A stretch of DNA of 64,000 nucleotides from a gamma proteobacterium HTCC5015 (GCA_000155715.1 DS990600.1:69975-133974), one strand, 5' to 3'. Shown: positions 27,906 to 36,718, numbered from the stretch's first letter. Notes: a model not told the origin generated them from the letters alone. Program-made: numbers and translations.

Positions 27906-27942
27906 ATAACAAGGGAGTATTTGCTGGAATAAGCTCTGAAAC
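27906..27942 (+). repeat. decayed terminal CRISPR repeat
   Basis: The last 14 bases (ATAAGCTCTGAAAC) match the array repeat exactly and the middle matches in part, while the first 13 bases have mostly diverged. A 55-bp segment separates it from the first full repeat, longer than any spacer. It marks the old, trailing end of the array. Confidence 0.8.
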
Positions 27943-27997
27943 AGCCGAGACAGCATCCTGCGCCGTAGAAAGTCAAACGCATCCAGTAACGCTACAA

Positions 27998-29816
27998 GTT
28001 TCAGCTGTTGGTTTGTTGGGATAAGCTCTGAAACGTTGAAAACGATAAAAACTGGCGCAAAGCCGAAAGTTTCAGCTGTTGGTTTGTTGGGATAAGCTCT
28101 GAAACAGCGGCCATGCACAAAAGCGAACCTGAAACATAGTTTCAGCTGTTGGTTTGTTGGGATAAGCTCTGAAACTTGTAGGGAATGGTTTTCATACCCG
28201 CTCCTCCTGTTTCAGCTGTTGGTTTGTTGGGATAAGCTCTGAAACGACAGGCTCTCAAAGAAGGCAGCCATCGGCCCACCGTTTCAGCTGTTGGTTTGTT
28301 GGGATAAGCTCTGAAACACAATAAGACGCCAGAGTTGTAGCGGGTAGATCGTTTCAGCTGTTGGTTTGTTGGGATAAGCTCTGAAACTTAATGTCTTCTT
28401 TAGTAAATTCAACCATTATAGTTTCAGCTGTTGGTTTGTTGGGATAAGCTCTGAAACGTCATGAAATTGAAATCGATGAAGAAGAGTTGGGTGGTTTCAG
28501 CTGTTGGTTTGTTGGGATAAGCTCTGAAACCGCGAATGAAGGCGGCAACATTGGCGGGAGCGATAGTTTCAGCTGTTGGTTTGTTGGGATAAGCTCTGAA
28601 ACGATAACTTTACCCCCGTAGACGAAACAAAGACAAGTTTCAGCTGTTGGTTTGTTGGGATAAGCTCTGAAACAACTCCCCCAATGAGTAACACCGCGCT
28701 TGCCTCTGTTTCAGCTGTTGGTTTGTTGGGATAAGCTCTGAAACCAGTCGTGACTGGGCCGTCCCGTCCAATTTGGTAGTTTCAGCTGTTGGTTTGTTGG
28801 GATAAGCTCTGAAACGTACACAGGAATGTTCAAACCCCGTTCATACGCACGTTTCAGCTGTTGGTTTGTTGGGATAAGCTCTGAAACAAGTGGGCCACGG
28901 TGCTCTCGGCCACGGCTTCATCGTTTCAGCTGTTGGTTTGTTGGGATAAGCTCTGAAACGACCAAGACGAAAACGCCCACGGCCTCAACATCCGGTTTCA
29001 GCTGTTGGTTTGTTGGGATAAGCTCTGAAACTTAACGGCGACAGCGTAAACGCCGATCTCGGTCTGTTTCAGCTGTTGGTTTGTTGGGATAAGCTCTGAA
29101 ACGCTCTCTCAGTGATTCTTTGCTCGTTTCTGCTACGTTTCAGCTGTTGGTTTGTTGGGATAAGCTCTGAAACCGAGACGTTTACGTTCACCACGACGAA
29201 GCGTTTGGTTTCAGCTGTTGGTTTGTTGGGATAAGCTCTGAAACACGAGAAAAGAGATTTGGAAAAAGTACATAGACCTGTTTCAGCTGTTGGTTTGTTG
29301 GGATAAGCTCTGAAACCTCATCACCATGGGCGTCGATGTGCAAAAGCGCGTTTCAGCTGTTGGTTTGTTGGGATAAGCTCTGAAACGACGCAGCACCGGT
29401 TGAAATTGAAAACGACGATGAAGGTTTCAGCTGTTGGTTTGTTGGGATAAGCTCTGAAACCAGCCGCTTCACCGATCTCTCGGTGAAAATTGCAATGTTT
29501 CAGCTGTTGGTTTGTTGGGATAAGCTCTGAAACGGAAAAAATCCGGGTGTTCTGGGGTGTCGATACTTCGTTTCAGCTGTTGGTTTGTTGGGATAAGCTC
29601 TGAAACGGCCTTCGCGTCTGAGTTCGGCAACATCACGGGTTTCAGCTGTTGGTTTGTTGGGATAAGCTCTGAAACAGTTCGATGATGAATTAGGCCCAAG
29701 GGATGTTTGTTTCAGCTGTTGGTTTGTTGGGATAAGCTCTGAAACGCCATACGGCTCAGGGTGGCGTCGTGTGCTGTCTGTTTCAGCTGTTGGTTTGTTG
29801 GGATAAGCTCTGAAAC
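27998..29816 (+). CRISPR. type II CRISPR array, 26 full repeats and 25 spacers
   Basis: A 37-bp repeat starting GTTTCAGCTG and ending AAGCTCTGAAAC occurs 26 times without a mismatch that I can see. It starts at 27998, 28069, 28139, 28209 and so on to 29780. The 25 spacers run from 32 to 37 bp, most 33-35, and none is repeated. The two ends are complementary (GTTTCAG / CTGAAAC). I orient it on the plus strand because the repeat then starts GTTTCAG, as in the Francisella type II-B repeat, and because the tracrRNA with its terminator is on this strand. The decayed repeat at the left puts the spacer-acquiring end at the right, next to the tracrRNA and cas genes. Short frames inside the array are not genes. 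Confidence 0.99.
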
Positions 29817-29900
29817 GCCGTTGTTAACTGTTTAAATTTCAGTGGGTTAGCATCGGCTTTCAGGGCGCAATATTCGAATTGGTTAGGTGACGGCACTTTC
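29817..29900. promoter_or_regulatory. putative leader, acquisition end of the array
   Basis: This A+T-leaning stretch (starting GCCGTTGTTAACTGTTTAAA) directly follows the last intact repeat on the side away from the decayed one. By position it is the leader used for spacer integration. No known motif is recognised. Confidence 0.4.
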
Positions 29901-29929
29901 TTGCAATTCTTCGAACTGGGTGATAGCTT
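29901..29929 (+). promoter_or_regulatory. possible tracrRNA promoter
   Basis: TTGCAA (29901-29906) and TAGCTT (29924-29929) are 17 bp apart, which would start transcription just at or inside the anti-repeat. The -10 is weak, so the call is tentative. Confidence 0.35.
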
Positions 29930-29930
29930 C

Positions 29931-30022
29931 GTATTCAGAATGCATCCCAACATTCTATACACTGAAATCATAGAAAATCACGTTTGTGGCCCGACCAACT
30001 GCTTCGGCATGTCGGGTTTTTT
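29931..30022 (+). ncRNA. tracrRNA (anti-repeat plus terminator)
   Basis: Positions 29932-29968 match the reverse complement of the CRISPR repeat at 24 of 37 positions without gaps, including blocks TTCAGA, ATCCCAACA and CTGAAA; the mismatches fall in two internal blocks that would bulge. It is followed by an A-rich stretch and a terminator: CCCGAC (29990-29995), inner TGC-TTCG-GCA, GTCGGG (30011-30016), then six T's. Only the plus strand has the T run, so the RNA is read rightward, about 90 nt long, and ends a few bases before the convergent cas4 stop. In type II systems this RNA pairs with crRNA repeats for processing and Cas9 loading. The exact 5' end is not known. Confidence 0.82.
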
Positions 30023-30027
30023 CATTT

Positions 30028-30606
30028 CTAAACCCTGTCATTACAGTGGGCTAAGTATTCACATTGGGTACATTTATTTTTTTGGGCGTCGCTGTACGGT
30101 AAAAATGGAGATGAAAGCGCCTTTCTAACATCGCCTACTAAGTCCTGTAACTCTTTAAAACTATTTTCTTTTCTCTCCTGCTTGTATGTCTTCCCTTGGC
30201 TCCCACACAAAATAAACCCCCTATCAAAGCTTCCAATGCCCATCTCCTCTAAGGCAAAACCGTAGGCTATGAGCTGTTGCCGGGCGCCTCTTACAGGGGG
30301 CTTATCATTGAGTTTAAACTCTACTGGGCAGACCTCTCCTTTACCCGTCAGTACTAGATCAACAAAACCATGTAAACCTAAGCTAGGTAGCTGCACAGGT
30401 TTCTCAAAAGTCTTCGCATAATCGGCCACGCCAAGGCGCTCTAATTTTCTCTCCCTAGTGAGTGCTTTTTGCCTTAAATGGTAGTTCGCACCCTGCTTGA
30501 CCCAAATAGGTGTTGCTGTCGGCGTACCCGCCATCATATGCCAAGGGACACGTGGGCAAAAAAGATACTGTCGTATCCAGCTAATAGGAATGCTTTCAGA
30601 GTACAT
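30028..30606 (-). CDS. cas4: Cas4, RecB-like Fe-S exonuclease of type II-B
   Basis: Starting at the ATG at 30606, which overlaps the cas2 end by 11 bp, the product is 192 residues. It carries the four Cys of the Fe-S cluster: C17 (LFCPRVPWH) and C179, C182, C188 near the end. The PD-(D/E)xK nuclease residues appear as D83 (GFVDLVL), E96 and K98 (PVEFKL), and Q110 (ARQQLIAYG). Cas4 trims prespacers and checks the PAM during acquisition. Its presence with cas9 defines subtype II-B. The open frame extends upstream to 30648 but the later start fits Cas4 better. Confidence 0.93.
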   Translation of the reverse strand: MYSESIPISWIRQYLFCPRVPWHMMAGTPTATPIWVKQGANYHLRQKALTRERKLERLGVADYAKTFEKPVQLPSLGLHGFVDLVLTGKGEVCPVEFKLNDKPPVRGARQQLIAYGFALEEMGIGSFDRGFILCGSQGKTYKQERKENSFKELQDLVGDVRKALSSPFLPYSDAQKNKCTQCEYLAHCNDRV

Positions 30607-30889
30607 CGAATCTATTAGGCGACTTGAAAGGGGAGGTAGCATAGCCAAAAATAAAAGCAGCCTGTGCTTGCTTTTGGCTCATTGGAATCAAAAAGGCACG
30701 GTCTGTAGGTTCTAGCTCTCCATTGAGTAGCCTGTGTATTGATTTCTTTTCAGTCGCCAGCACACAACCCCAAAAGACGGACTTCTGAACTGGCTTTAGG
30801 CCAATATCTTTAAGCTTTTCAAACACCCTGCTCCTCGCTTTATTATCCTCAATGTCATAAGCCACTAAAACGTCTTGATAGAGCTTCAT
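30596..30889 (-). CDS. cas2: CRISPR-associated endoribonuclease-fold protein Cas2
   Basis: The ATG at 30889, one base after the cas1 stop and behind GGTGGT, gives 97 residues. The ferredoxin-like start MKLYQDVLVAYDIEDNKARS holds the conserved Asp (D12), followed by KLKDIGLKPVQKSVFWGCV. Cas2 dimers bridge two Cas1 dimers in the integration complex. Size and place in the operon are typical. Confidence 0.95.
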   Translation of the reverse strand: MKLYQDVLVAYDIEDNKARSRVFEKLKDIGLKPVQKSVFWGCVLATEKKSIHRLLNGELEPTDRAFLIPMSQKQAQAAFIFGYATSPFKSPNRFDVL

Positions 30890-30890
30890 A

Positions 30891-31884
30891 TCACCACCTA
30901 AAAAAGTAAGGCCTGTAGGATGTATCACCAGAAAAATTACCCGCTAAGCGATAAATTTGCCTCTGCATGATCGTTTCTAATGTGAGCTTACGACCACGAT
31001 AATGGTATTTTGTCGCCATGGTTTTATGGACGCCAGAAATAATCCTCCGTTTCAAAGACGGGTTGAATTTTTTGGCATTACTAAGAGCAGATCTGTTTTT
31101 AATCACGACTCTATCAACAACCCAGGCACGGTATTCCTCCATGAGGTCAAAGACCAACGAGGGCCTGCCATCCCGGTCTGCATGATAAACACCAGCATAT
31201 ACTTCCAAGCCCGCATTAATTAAGCAGTGCCAAACATAGGACTGGAGAATCGAGTACCCCAGATTAAGGCTAATATTGCCAAGATCGGCGCCCCCCCCTA
31301 CCTACCCTTCCCTGAAAAGAGCTAGGTAACAATTCAGCCTCCTTGAGAGCCTCCCAATAACATCTGGCAGCTTGGCCCTCAATTCCCATTAAGGGATTAC
31401 GCCAGCCATCCAAAGCTAACGGGCTGTAAGTTTTAGCGCGTACTGCATACTGCTCTAGTAGTTCAGCGTTGGCATGGAGTATAGGCAAATTACTATTGCG
31501 TAGTGACTTTGAAAAATACTTAAGAACCGCACGTTGATTTCTTAGCTTCCCGTGCACTATTTTTGCAGACACAGCTCTCGCTTCGCTCGAGCGAATGAAA
31601 CGAAATTGTGACTCCCTTACAGAGCAGACTGCATGCTGGTTAGCGTGACTTATGCAAGCGAGGGGCCGTCCGCGAAAATCCAAAAAAAATATTTTCACTC
31701 CCCGAGCAGAGCAGGCAAGAATTAAATTAGAGGAAAGGGAAACACCCTCTTTTGCCACCGTCAGTGTCTTAATCCTGCTCAAGGGGTACTCCGCTATAAG
31801 AGTGCCCGATTCTTGAACAGTTAATCTTTCGCTTTTAATTCCAAGAAACTGGCCGTATCCACTGATGGTTATGTGCCTTAGCAT
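30891..31884 (-). pseudogene. cas1: Cas1 integrase, interrupted by a +1 frameshift in a G8 run
   Basis: Two frames together make one Cas1. The first part (31884 to about 31298) has the fold start MLRHITISGYGQFLGIKSER and the catalytic Glu in GIEGQAARCYW (E169). The second part (down to 30891) has LGYSILQSYVWHCLINAGLE and the remaining metal ligands in YHADRDGRPSLVFDLMEEYR. The frame changes at eight C's on the plus strand (31291-31298). Removing one base joins them into a protein of about 330 residues, a normal Cas1 length. As written, translation stops soon after the run and loses His and the second acidic residue. It could be a true mutation, a variable tract, or a sequencing error. Start lies 2 bp after the cas9 stop. 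Confidence 0.9.
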
Positions 31885-31886
31885 AG

Positions 31887-34800
31887 TTAAGCTCTCCGCA
31901 AGCTATATGCTTTCTTGACCTCTGCGTTAGCGCCGTTGGCAATATATTCAAAAGTTATTTTTTGCCCTGTTTCCAGTAAGAACAAGTTTGAACGGGGCGG
32001 AATGAGCAAACTGGGTATCTCTCGATTCCAGTCAAAGGTTTTATTGACGGTATCTAAGTCTTGGATTCCATTTACACGTAAAGCCGATTTGAAGTGTCTT
32101 TCAAATTGGTCCTCATCAACCGTAAAGCGAATATAGAACCTATTCTGAGAGCCTGGAGCTAGCTCAAGAGATGAAACAAATTGTTTTAAATCGGAGTCGG
32201 ATATATCAATTTTTCTCCACTCATCGAAGTAAACAATTTCATTCTTATCAAGATGAACTAACTCACTACTAATGGGAGTAACCGATTTACTTTCTGCAAT
32301 TTGTGGAACCAGCGCTGGAGATTTAAAGTCTACGTTATCCCCTTCTTTTTTAAATCCAACGGCACTGTAGCCATCAATGGCTAATAACTGATAGTTATAG
32401 CCATTTGGTGTTTTTCTCTTCACACGAAATCCACCAGAGACACTATCTACAACTGGAAGAGAGAAATCTTTCCTTACTTTCCGGTGCGCTTGGTTGGGGA
32501 TATTTCTTGGGAAATGTTTGCGGTAAACCTTCTCCCAAATTTCCTGTGGTGGCATCTTTGTTCCCCAGTAGGTCTCAAGCAGTGGCTCGTCAAGCAGGTT
32601 TTCCCAAGCAGATTTTGCGGGAATCCCAATGGTTCCGGAAAACCCACACTTCTCCTTTCTTTTTCCTATCTCATTAACTGTCACCGTTAGCTTTAAGCTC
32701 TTACGGATAGCGTCGAGCGTTTTCATCTTTTTGCCTGAGTCATCAGAAAACTTAGCACGCAGTTCTGTTTTTCTCTGCGTGAAATGAATAGAGTTTAGCA
32801 GCTCAGCAGCAATGTCCTTTTCGCCCACCTTTTCTTGCAAGTAGTCGAAAGCTTTGACCTTATCGATAGACATATACAAGTACCGTCCATCAATTCGCTC
32901 CTGCCAGTCAGAAAGGGACTGGGCTCCCACCTCTTCACCTTTAAACAAAAGAAATGGAGAGAGGCTTTCAAACACAACGTCAGCGCCCTTTGCCTTTAGC
33001 GAATTATCTATGTCATAGCCAGCCATCAGCCCATTTTCATCTATAAGAATGGGCAAAAATCTCTCAGCGTAAATACCATCTTTAAACAAAGATGTGCTCC
33101 CAATATTATATCGGCGATATTTGGGTCGCCGATCGAGCGCATCAACCTTAATCAAGTCTGGAATAAGAGCGCTTCGCCAACCAGTCTTTTCAAAACTGGT
33201 GGAAGAAATTGTTTTCAACCTACTGGCCGTGTGCGGCTGCTCTAGTGCCTCGAGAAATGTACACACGGCGTCTACAACATGGCTAGCGGCAGGCTGCGGG
33301 TCTTTCTTAGCCCAAATGGGTTCAGCGCTGGCTAGCATTTTCCGCTGTTTACTCACTGACCATGGGTCAATTTGGTGGGCGCTCAGGGTGTAATCACGAC
33401 CTTGTTTATCTAGATGTTCCGCAAGTAAAGAGGCAATTTTTTTTGCAAGCCAAGCCTGCGTTCCATTGACTCTTGTAATATTTTTTACTGCGAGAAGGCT
33501 AGTCACTTCACTTTTCAGTTCGGGAACAAAAAGAGCATGGCGGAATGCTTTCTGGTCTTCTCTGGAGAGCTCACTAAATGACCGTAGTTTTTCTCCCCCC
33601 TCGGTAAACCGTTGAATAGTGGTTTTAATTTTCTTCTTAATCAGGTTGACATCCGATGTAGAAAATTGTTTTTTCAAATACTTATCGTTCAACTGCTCTA
33701 TAACGTAAACCCTGTTTCCTTTATCGTGATTCCCTTTTGATGAACAGTAAATTAGGTTGGCCTCGGAATTAAAAACTGTTTTTTTTGTTCTTCCTGTCAG
33801 GCTTCTTGGAATGATATGGTCAATTTCACCGCTGCCACCTAGAGGTGCTCCCGTATAAGGACATATGCCTTCTGAGGATGTTTTTATTCGCTCAGTTTTA
33901 CTTACCCATCCTGCTTTACTTTTTTCACCCAATTCTTTTGCTTTTTTGGCTTTTGCGGACCCCCTTCCCCTTTTAATCTCTTCTAATTCAGCGGTAAAGC
34001 TAAATTGATTGCTTTCAATAATGATGGGGATATCAATAGAAAACTCTTTTGGCACATCATTAATTTGCGCGATCTTATGCTGGGCTATTTTCCGAGCAAT
34101 GTGTTCAATAATTGACGCCATCTGCCCATCAAATGGCCGGGTAGAGTCGGCAGAAAGTCGAGTGCACATCGCTGATTTTAACGGTACTTTTCTTTCGCCA
34201 TGTATTTCAGATAAGAGTTGATTAGTAAGTAGTGATTCAACTTTTTCTTCCTGCATTCTCCAGATATTTTCGTATGTGCAGGCTCTACACGTTTTGTTAA
34301 ACCCTGCGACATCACCTTCTATGATATTGAAAATTTGCGCTAAACTATGCGGCGAGGCGAAGCGGCTCACTTCATCAGGCTCAATATTTAGCGCTTCCCC
34401 TATTTTCGAAGCAATCAGCCCAGAATTCTTATAAAGCAGAGCCAAAGGCTTATCATCAAGTTTTTTTCCAGCCTCAAGCTTATGTAACTGTTGAAGGCCA
34501 TATTCCTTTAAATAGACGCCGTATGTCTTTTGCACTTGTGAGGCGAGCCTACACCAACCCCTAACATTCCTTCGTTCTATCTTAGGTGTGCCACTCTTCC
34601 AAAACTCTTCTATAAAGCTAGATTGCTCATCATCTGATAGATTTTTTCCTAAAACTGCACTCAGTAATGTTGATTTTAATTTTTCTTTTCTGGGGGGTGT
34701 TTTGCCACACTTAAAAAACAGTTTATTTTCCGTTTCAAACCATAGCCCCTCCCTAGCTTCCTTGGTTTCATCCACTATGTTTTTTACGAGCAGTAGAAAT

Positions 34801-36080
34801 TCATCAACTTCTGACCCAAGGGAAAGCTTTAATCGCTTATAACCCGCTAGATCGTTTCGTTTCTCTGCGTCAGTGATGGATATTAAAAGCCTAAGCTGGT
34901 AAGGGTCGATCGATCGGCTTCTTTCGACAATACGGTGAAGCGCATTAGCCAAAGTTACATTTTCATTTAAATAGGCATTATCGTTCTGTTTTACTAGCTG
35001 CCCTACCCACTCTTTCCACTTTGGGTAATGCATAGTTAGTTTTTCATCTGACAACAAAACAGACTGGCACTTAGGGGGTCTTCTATTATTTTGATCTTCG
35101 TATGGTGGAATTGTCAGGTCCGCACTTAGACTTTTAAGCGTTTTTAGCAGAGGGGCACCTTTTGTTTTTAATATTATATTTTTCTTTTCAGCCTCATCTG
35201 TCCCTCCCTTTGTGTGCCAGCCTTGAACCCACTGGTAGAAATATTTCTCTAGTCGCTTCTCATCCCAGTAACTAACTCCAGACATATTTGGGTCATTGAA
35301 GTACTTTCTTAATAGTCGTAGTTGAAAGTTACTTAAATGCCCAACCAAATTATAAAAGCCATCAATTTCCTTTGAGCTAATTTGCTTCTCTAACTCTTCG
35401 TTGCTCTTAATATCCTCCTTAATGTTCGCAAGATACTCGCTTCTAGACTTGTGCCCATCGACTGTGCTTTTTAAAACATTTTCTGATGCTATAAGGATAT
35501 TACCCCAGGCTTCTGACAGCTCCTTTTTTTCATCTTTATATTTTCCGTCAAGCGCGGTATCAAGTAGTTTTTTAAACTCATTTTTATTAGAGGGTATTTT
35601 ACCCTCGGCTCTAAATCTCACTAATTTGTTTTTGTCCGATAATAACTTAGCCAATTGCTCTAAAAGCGGAGCACTTGAATTAAAATAATCGGGCATCATC
35701 TCGCTGAAAGGTAGTGGACTCACATTCATTGACTCTTCATCTACTTCTTCGCTGATATATGTGTAACCGCGACGATTCAATAGTCCATTGATGAATTTTA
35801 ATAGTGGCTCTGTGACTTCTTCTCGTTTGATGCCGTATTCACTATCAAGTATTAACCAAAGTAGCCTCTTGGCCATTTTCCGTCTTTTATAGCCTCTAAC
35901 CTGGTGCCGTTTACCCCGTCGTCCTTCTTGTGACCAAGTAACATTACCTCTGTCATCAACCAAAAGCCCCTTTGCTACCTCTTGCGTGCAGTCTGCTCCC
36001 TCAAGATATTGGTAAAGAGCCACCCCAGTAAACTTGGCACCGAGGTCAATTGCAATTGGTGAGATATAGTTTTTTGTCAT
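31887..36080 (-). CDS. cas9: Cas9, RNA-guided DNA endonuclease, type II-B
   Basis: The 1,397-residue protein has all catalytic parts. RuvC-I: IAIDLGAKFTGVALY with D12. Arg-rich bridge helix: about residues 53-78 (GRRGKRHQVRGYKRRKMAKR). RuvC-II: FSIDIPIIIES with E689. HNH: GEIDHIIPRSLTG with H755, then N775 and N784. RuvC-III: ASHVVDAVCTFLE with H934 and D937. The long helical lobe (about 80-650) contains a CRAC pair (C598, C601). The C-terminal 350 residues would form WED and PAM-interacting parts. It is shorter than the Francisella enzyme (1,629) but in the usual range of other II-B proteins. It leads the operon cas9-cas1-cas2-cas4. The DNA is clearly richer in A+T than the flanking nqr and fad genes, which suggests transfer. 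Confidence 0.98.
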   Translation of the reverse strand: MTKNYISPIAIDLGAKFTGVALYQYLEGADCTQEVAKGLLVDDRGNVTWSQEGRRGKRHQVRGYKRRKMAKRLLWLILDSEYGIKREEVTEPLLKFINGLLNRRGYTYISEEVDEESMNVSPLPFSEMMPDYFNSSAPLLEQLAKLLSDKNKLVRFRAEGKIPSNKNEFKKLLDTALDGKYKDEKKELSEAWGNILIASENVLKSTVDGHKSRSEYLANIKEDIKSNEELEKQISSKEIDGFYNLVGHLSNFQLRLLRKYFNDPNMSGVSYWDEKRLEKYFYQWVQGWHTKGGTDEAEKKNIILKTKGAPLLKTLKSLSADLTIPPYEDQNNRRPPKCQSVLLSDEKLTMHYPKWKEWVGQLVKQNDNAYLNENVTLANALHRIVERSRSIDPYQLRLLISITDAEKRNDLAGYKRLKLSLGSEVDEFLLLVKNIVDETKEAREGLWFETENKLFFKCGKTPPRKEKLKSTLLSAVLGKNLSDDEQSSFIEEFWKSGTPKIERRNVRGWCRLASQVQKTYGVYLKEYGLQQLHKLEAGKKLDDKPLALLYKNSGLIASKIGEALNIEPDEVSRFASPHSLAQIFNIIEGDVAGFNKTCRACTYENIWRMQEEKVESLLTNQLLSEIHGERKVPLKSAMCTRLSADSTRPFDGQMASIIEHIARKIAQHKIAQINDVPKEFSIDIPIIIESNQFSFTAELEEIKRGRGSAKAKKAKELGEKSKAGWVSKTERIKTSSEGICPYTGAPLGGSGEIDHIIPRSLTGRTKKTVFNSEANLIYCSSKGNHDKGNRVYVIEQLNDKYLKKQFSTSDVNLIKKKIKTTIQRFTEGGEKLRSFSELSREDQKAFRHALFVPELKSEVTSLLAVKNITRVNGTQAWLAKKIASLLAEHLDKQGRDYTLSAHQIDPWSVSKQRKMLASAEPIWAKKDPQPAASHVVDAVCTFLEALEQPHTASRLKTISSTSFEKTGWRSALIPDLIKVDALDRRPKYRRYNIGSTSLFKDGIYAERFLPILIDENGLMAGYDIDNSLKAKGADVVFESLSPFLLFKGEEVGAQSLSDWQERIDGRYLYMSIDKVKAFDYLQEKVGEKDIAAELLNSIHFTQRKTELRAKFSDDSGKKMKTLDAIRKSLKLTVTVNEIGKRKEKCGFSGTIGIPAKSAWENLLDEPLLETYWGTKMPPQEIWEKVYRKHFPRNIPNQAHRKVRKDFSLPVVDSVSGGFRVKRKTPNGYNYQLLAIDGYSAVGFKKEGDNVDFKSPALVPQIAESKSVTPISSELVHLDKNEIVYFDEWRKIDISDSDLKQFVSSLELAPGSQNRFYIRFTVDEDQFERHFKSALRVNGIQDLDTVNKTFDWNREIPSLLIPPRSNLFLLETGQKITFEYIANGANAEVKKAYSLRRA

Positions 36081-36487: not shown

Positions 36488-36718
36488 CTATTTTGTTGGG
36501 GTTCTGAGTAGAAAAAAGCAACCAACGCTGGTGGCGATTGTTCCAGCCATGTATCGGATGTAGACATTATTATTTGAGCGTTGTGCGAACCATTGGAAGA
36601 GTTCATTTCCCACACTTTGTTGGGCTTCGTAGCCCCAGTAAATAAAGGCGAGCCCAAGGATGACAAGGCAGCTTCCCGCGATACGTTGTAGATGTATTGG
36701 CTTCATTTTTTTGAGCAT
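36488..36718 (-). CDS. small membrane protein, DUF3185-like
   Basis: The 76-residue product has two hydrophobic segments (IAGSCLVILGLAFIYWGYEA and AGTIATSVGCFFLL) with a short polar stretch between, the layout of DUF3185 proteins. The ATG at 36706 is an alternative start. It is downstream of nqrF beyond a terminator and is probably independent. Function unknown. Confidence 0.65.
   Translation of the reverse strand: MLKKMKPIHLQRIAGSCLVILGLAFIYWGYEAQQSVGNELFQWFAQRSNNNVYIRYMAGTIATSVGCFFLLRTPTK

What the first reader, a model, noticed from the sequence alone, without database searches (positions are those of the whole stretch)
27906..36080. Type II-B CRISPR-Cas locus with a 1,397-residue Cas9
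All catalytic residues of RuvC and HNH are present (D12, E689, H755, H934, D937), the array has 25 different spacers, the repeats are uniform and cas4 is present, which defines II-B. The locus looks active in interference. Cas9 is about 230 residues shorter than the Francisella enzyme, so its PAM and RNA needs cannot be assumed. The A+T-rich cas genes contrast with the flanks.
Basis: partly seen in the sequence, partly recalled or inferred. Interest (0 to 1): 0.8.

Follow-up and report, generated by a model that had tools for sequence, protein, structure and literature searches.

The report
Type II-B CRISPR-Cas9 immune locus
This is an ordinary but divergent bacterial CRISPR-Cas9 immune locus of the rare II-B kind, with an intact cutting enzyme and a newly located helper RNA but a frame-broken spacer-capture gene in this assembly; comparing it with its relatives suggests that II-B arrays are copied toward the end where new spacers are added, from a promoter element inside each repeat.

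Summary
In detail: an intact 1,397-aa Cas9, cas1, cas2, cas4, 26 identical 37-nt repeats and 25 distinct spacers. Cas9 is II-B by curated model (447 bits, cut-off 399), by PADLOC and by tree (II-B/II-C split, support 100). It is a deep branch, at most 34% identical to any relative. Its length is normal for II-B; Francisella-type Cas9s are the long ones. Cas-gene GC and codon use differ sharply from the flanks, and two relatives of its family lack Cas9.

(1) cas1 is frameshifted at the window's only long G/C run, splitting its catalytic residues, so spacer capture is broken or the assembly is wrong there. (2) A tracrRNA lies at 29934-30022 on the + strand, with anti-repeat and terminator, so crRNAs run opposite to the cas genes. 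(3) No spacer has a credible target, so the PAM is unknown.

Comparing about 25 II-B arrays gave a result I did not find in the papers searched. II-B repeats carry a -10-like hexamer 6-9 nt from their 3' end, decayed repeats sit at the 5' end, and a paired TTCGAA-type motif lies about 57 and 95 nt beyond the 3' end. II-B arrays therefore look transcribed toward the leader, as known for II-C.

The parts
31887..36080 (-). cas9 (type II-B, Csx12-type), 1,397 aa, all RuvC and HNH catalytic residues present
   Evidence: TIGR03031 447.3 bits, cut-off 399.4; Pfam Csx12 lobe E 4.5e-234; PADLOC Cas9b, CAS-II-B; invariant D12, E689, H755, H934, D937
31270..31884 (-). cas1, N-terminal part (holds the catalytic Glu, by position in the family)
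   Evidence: TIGR00287 95.7 bits over positions 2-184; PADLOC Cas1_II positions 2-187
30891..31208 (-). cas1, C-terminal part in another frame (holds the catalytic His and Asp, by position in the family)
   Evidence: PADLOC Cas1_II positions 215-317; frames
31291..31298 (.). C8 (G8 on the coding strand) run at which the cas1 frame shifts by +1; only G/C run of 7 or more in the window
30596..30928 (-). cas2 (likely start at the ATG near 30889)
   Evidence: TIGR01573 38.6 bits, cut-off 24.5
30028..30648 (-). cas4, the II-B marker gene
   Evidence: TIGR00372 92.2 bits, cut-off 65; PADLOC Cas4_II E 1.5e-52
27998..29816 (+). CRISPR array: 26 identical 37-nt repeats, 25 unique spacers of 32-37 nt; inferred crRNA strand is +
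27920..27942 (+). decayed 5' terminal repeat (stub): 3' half 17/18, 5' half 8/19; sits where scaRNA lies in Francisella-type loci
   Evidence: PMC6199352
29817..29933 (+). putative leader on the 3' (tracrRNA) side of the array
29873..29878 (.). leader half-site 1, TTCGAA (core matched at +57 nt from array end)
29910..29915 (.). leader half-site 2, TTCGAA (core matched at +94 nt; 37 nt after half-site 1)
29934..30022 (+). predicted tracrRNA: anti-repeat 29934-29967, CTGAAATCA core, terminator stem 29990-30016 followed by T6

Best explanation
The locus is a type II-B CRISPR-Cas system of a gammaproteobacterium, probably gained by transfer. Cas9, a tracrRNA made from the + strand at 29934-30022 and crRNAs made from the + strand of the array form the interference complex; RNase III and Cas9 would mature the duplex, and Cas9 would cut DNA next to an unknown 3' PAM. 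Cas1, Cas2 and Cas4 would add spacers at the cas4/tracrRNA side, but cas1 is frameshifted in this assembly, so capture is either lost in this strain or the base count is wrong. Shown: the genes, array, anti-repeat and terminator. Inferred: RNA processing, cutting, and the polarity of the array (transcribed toward its leader, from promoter elements in the repeats).
For: Family models above curated cut-offs. Tree: II-B and II-C are the two sides of one branch, support 100. Solved relatives 9ko9/8umf (E about 1e-160) and FnCas9 9ehf (2e-79). Anti-repeat downstream of the array in the window and in most II-B loci, with a shared CTGAAATCA core. crRNA:tracrRNA duplex -32.6 kcal/mol. Array transcribed opposite to the cas operon is published for II-B (PMC3936727). 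Two of the three FnCas9 REC3-clamp residues are kept (S576, Q582; Fn Y794 is H578 here), mapped from the alignment with residue numbers from PMC12231574.
Against: No RNA data. No credible protospacer, so activity against any target is unproven. cas1 is broken as read. The repeat's -10-like hexamer is weak in the window itself (TAAGCT).
Confidence: 0.9

Rival explanations
1. The system is a decaying relic: cas1 is truly dead, the array is frozen and only residual interference or a regulatory (scaRNA-like) function remains.
For: The cas1 frame break separates Glu from His/Asp; three relatives have open cas1 frames there; a repeat-like stub lies upstream of the array where scaRNA is found in Francisella.
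Against: Cas9, cas2 and cas4 are open and all 26 repeats are identical. The stub pairs poorly with the tracrRNA (-14.2 kcal/mol against a shuffled mean of -9.6, sd 2.4) and lacks the repeat's 5' half.
Confidence: 0.3
2. The cas1 break is a sequencing or assembly error and the whole system, including adaptation, is working.
For: It is a single-base slip in an 8-base homopolymer, the only G/C run of 7 or more in the window; the other cas genes look intact.
Against: The other coding G/C runs of 7 found in a 464-kb sample leave frames open, so there is no sign of systematic homopolymer error.
Confidence: 0.5
3. The -10-like hexamer in II-B repeats is a Cas1-Cas2 recognition or RNA-pairing feature and not a promoter; arrays are transcribed only from an upstream promoter.
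For: The hexamer lies in the part of the repeat that also pairs with the anti-repeat in several loci; no transcript starts are available.
Against: Its identity (TATRNT type) stays at a fixed place while the surrounding repeat sequence changes (0 of 5000 shuffles reach it even with one repeat per cluster); II-C repeats, whose repeat-borne promoters are published, show the same kind of hexamer at their 3' end (PMC8092290).
Confidence: 0.35

Closest known systems
Type II-B CRISPR-Cas of Francisella novicida U112 (FnCas9)
   Same: cas9-cas1-cas2-cas4 set, GTTTCAG repeat start, array transcribed opposite to cas genes, tracrRNA downstream of the array, repeat-like segment upstream, two of three REC3-clamp residues
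   Different: Cas9 is 232 aa shorter and very divergent; cas1 frameshifted here; no scaRNA supported; PAM unknown
Parasutterella/Sutterella-type II-B Cas9 (PDB 9ko9, 8umf are the closest solved Cas9 chains by sequence)
   Same: Similar length (1,435-1,462 aa chains), same domain order along the sequence
   Different: Separate branch in the tree (Parasutterella L029, Sutterella L031); different repeat and tracrRNA sequence
II-B loci of a Gammaproteobacteria MAG (L008/L019) and a Chromatiales MAG (L022)
   Same: Most similar repeats (share GGGATAAGCT), anti-repeat and tracrRNA tail in the same place
   Different: Cas9 only about 34% identical; cas1 of G295 (L008/L019) is open across the place where the window's is broken
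Type II-C arrays (published repeat-borne promoters, transcription toward the leader)
   Same: Inferred polarity and -10-like hexamer in the repeat
   Different: Hexamer at the very 3' end of the repeat in II-C, 6-9 nt inside it in II-B; Cas9 on the other side of the tree; no cas4; no 57/95 half-site pair

Membership tests
Type II-B CRISPR-Cas | Cas9 of the Csx12 family (TIGR03031) above the curated cut-off | tested here: met
   447.3 bits against 399.4
Type II-B CRISPR-Cas | Cas9 groups with II-B and not with II-C | tested here: met
   25 II-B and 12 II-C rows fall on two sides of one branch, support 100
Type II-B CRISPR-Cas | Cas9 does not group with II-A | not tested
   No II-A Cas9 was put in the tree; none of the neighbouring proteins scanned is csn2, and cas4 is present
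Type II-B CRISPR-Cas | cas4 in the operon | tested here: met
   TIGR00372 92.2 bits, PADLOC Cas4_II E 1.5e-52
Type II-B CRISPR-Cas | array transcribed opposite to the cas operon, tracrRNA with anti-repeat | tested here: met
   By sequence only: anti-repeat and terminator on the + strand; published rule in PMC3936727
Type II-B CRISPR-Cas | intact Cas1 for adaptation (not needed to assign the subtype) | tested here: not met
   Frameshift in this assembly; the subtype is set by Cas9 and cas4, so membership does not hang on it
Type II-B CRISPR-Cas | RNA-guided DNA cleavage with a defined PAM | not testable with these tools
   No credible protospacer found
scaRNA-bearing II-B locus (Francisella type) | repeat-like segment upstream of the array that pairs with tracrRNA | tested here: inconclusive
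   Segment present at 27920-27942, but pairing of -14.2 kcal/mol is within about 2 sd of shuffles

The most novel reading that the evidence does not exclude
Type II-B arrays as a class run 'backwards' like II-C: the repeats carry a -10 promoter element about 7 nt from their 3' end, transcription runs from the decayed old end toward the leader, and the leader (usually on the tracrRNA side) holds a conserved pair of TTCGAA-type half-sites, often in inverted orientation, about 57 and 95 nt from the array and 36-39 nt apart, which would be the docking site for spacer integration. The decayed 5' repeat keeps its 3' half because it still works as the first promoter, and Francisella scaRNA may descend from such a stub.
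Probability: 0.6. Interest if true: 0.6.

Novelty: new member of a known kind. Interest (0 to 1): 0.45.

Why it matters
II-B is the rarest Cas9 subtype and has few characterised members. This one has a very divergent Cas9 with a defined tracrRNA candidate, so it can be tested directly as an enzyme. The comparative result gives concrete coordinates for where II-B crRNAs should start and where new spacers should go in, which is directly testable in a laboratory II-B system.

Tried and rejected
Spacers against phages, plasmids, the own genome, and seed scans of viral contigs for six spacers gave no credible target: the seed matches do not extend beyond the seed (23-25 of 32-35). One Pelagibacter phage match (30/36, E 0.5) lies in a run of acidic codons and its 3' flank, ACAGTG, shows no NGG. 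Reading 27920-27942 as an anti-repeat on the - strand was rejected: no terminator was found close after it, and the + strand candidate at 29934 is shared by relatives. Identity with gamma proteobacterium HTCC5015 is a lead from memory only; no held paper links that strain to Cas9, and it was not confirmed. Rfam finds nothing at the locus. Attempts to gather further II-B loci for an independent test (398 genomes of the phylum, 33 of the order of G292, plasmids, viral contigs) added none.

Full report
What is there. The window is contig C28:69975-133974 of a 2.63-Mb, 30-contig gammaproteobacterial genome. On the - strand lie cas9 (31887-36080, 1,397 aa), cas1, cas2 and cas4; beyond cas4 is an array of 26 identical 37-nt repeats with 25 different spacers. 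The repeat occurs only there in the genome. The flanks look like housekeeping genes: by their sequence, fadA/fadB-type genes on the left and nqr genes on the right (the nqr set matches a relative). In a relative of the same family (G086) nqrF is followed by an apbE-like gene and no cas genes, and neither G086 nor G312 shows a II-B Cas9; G086 was also negative for the general Cas9 model.

Subtype. Cas9 passes the II-B model (447.3 bits, cut-off 399.4). PADLOC calls it Cas9b/CAS-II-B and its neighbours Cas1_II, Cas2_II and Cas4_II. In a tree with 24 other II-B and 12 II-C Cas9s, the subtypes are two sides of one branch with support 100; the window's protein is a deep branch with no starred partner and at most 34% identity. 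II-A was not sampled. Full-length II-B proteins in this set run from 1,372 aa (Legionella) to 1,695 aa, so 1,397 is normal.

cas1 is broken as read. Its N-terminal part (31270-31884) holds the Glu and its C-terminal part (30891-31208) the His and Asp; they are separated by a +1 slip in the window's only G/C run of 7 or more. Homologues in G292, G295 and G006 are open across this place. In a 464-kb sample of the same genome the other coding G/C runs of 7 do not break frames, so systematic error is not evident, but a single error is not excluded.

Transfer. Every cas gene is 6 to 8 sd below the 33 flanking genes in GC3. Six of 373 other 4-kb windows in the sample are as A+T-rich, so such islands are rare but not unique. 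With the two relatives this favours gain over vertical descent, without proving it. Plasmids hold nothing similar at the DNA or protein level.

tracrRNA. Scanning for anti-repeats found a + strand segment at 29934-29967 that pairs with the + strand repeat (-32.6 kcal/mol), followed by a stem at 29990-30016 and T6. In 19 of 24 II-B loci, the window included, an anti-repeat that scores above every shuffle starts 105-160 nt beyond the array on the same strand; several of the rest show the shared CTGAAATCA/CTGTAATCA core by eye. This fixes the crRNA strand as +, opposite to cas, as published for II-B (PMC3936727).

Polarity of II-B arrays. Four observations agree. (a) Strongly decayed end repeats are found only at the 5' end in crRNA orientation; the 3'-most repeat differs from the rest by at most one base (L039). 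In eight of eight full-length stubs, the window's included, the 3' half is better kept than the 5' half, although by inference that half belongs to no crRNA handle. (b) II-B repeats hold a -10-like hexamer, mostly 6-9 nt from the 3' end: mean best score 5.26 bits, against 2.12 (sd 0.41) in shuffles, none of 2000 reaching it; with one repeat per cluster, 5.76 against 2.33, none of 5000. The scoring matrix was written from general knowledge of the -10 element. II-C repeats, used as a positive control, mostly have such hexamers at the very 3' end, as expected from published repeat-borne promoters that fire toward the variable end (PMC8092290). (c) On the 3' flank, two half-sites (TTCGAA, TTTTCGCAAA and similar) lie about 57 and 95 nt from the array, 36-39 nt apart, in 21 of 22 II-B arrays, in 0 of 17 5' flanks, in 0 of 25 II-C flanks and in at most 1 per shuffled set. 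The one that the pattern appears to miss (L020) has a perfect 12-nt inverted repeat there. Eight of the 22 have individually significant inverted repeats (p of 0.005 or less), and several differ in sequence yet keep the inversion. (d) Loci set aside when the pattern was written agree: L049 once its array end was corrected, L024 beside its anti-repeat, and L026, whose array is flipped relative to cas and whose half-sites stay on the array's 3' side with no anti-repeat core in the printed flank. The pair therefore seems to belong to the array and not to the tracrRNA promoter. The pattern was written after seeing the data, so these counts are descriptive, not a pre-planned test. The window follows the rule (half-site cores at +57 and +94), though its arms pair poorly and its hexamer is weak (TAAGCT).

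scaRNA. The stub at 27920-27942 sits where scaRNA is predicted in II-B loci (PMC6199352), but its pairing with the tracrRNA is not clearly better than chance, so a scaRNA is neither shown nor excluded.

Spacers. No self-target; nothing significant in phages or plasmids; seed matches in viral contigs do not extend. The PAM is unknown.

Verdict. The suspicion that this is strain HTCC5015, whose Cas9 I recall from published II-B lists, is unverified memory; if it is right, the locus itself is already listed in the literature.

Noticed in passing
window 29873-29878 and 29910-29915; 3' flanks of arrays in L009, L010, L019-L049: Conserved pair of TTCGAA-type half-sites about 57 and 95 nt beyond the array end in essentially all II-B loci examined, absent from 5' flanks and from II-C arrays.
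   Followed up: yes
II-B repeats of L009, L010, L019-L049 and window 27998-29816: -10-like hexamer 6-9 nt from the 3' end of II-B repeats; in II-C repeats it is at the very 3' end.
   Followed up: yes
window 27920-27942: Decayed repeat stub 55 nt upstream of the array, keeping only its 3' half; same place as scaRNA in Francisella-type loci.
   Followed up: partly
window 9354, 12373, 12435, 27306, 36435: REP-like palindrome GTGGGTCGGxCTTCAGxCCGAC in several copies, two of them close outside the CRISPR locus on either side.
   Followed up: partly
window 36488-36718: Small DUF3185 gene between cas9 and nqrF, where relative G086 has an apbE-like gene after nqrF.
   Followed up: no
L026 (Turicimonas muris): Array is flipped relative to its cas genes, and the leader-like half-sites moved with it.
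   Followed up: partly
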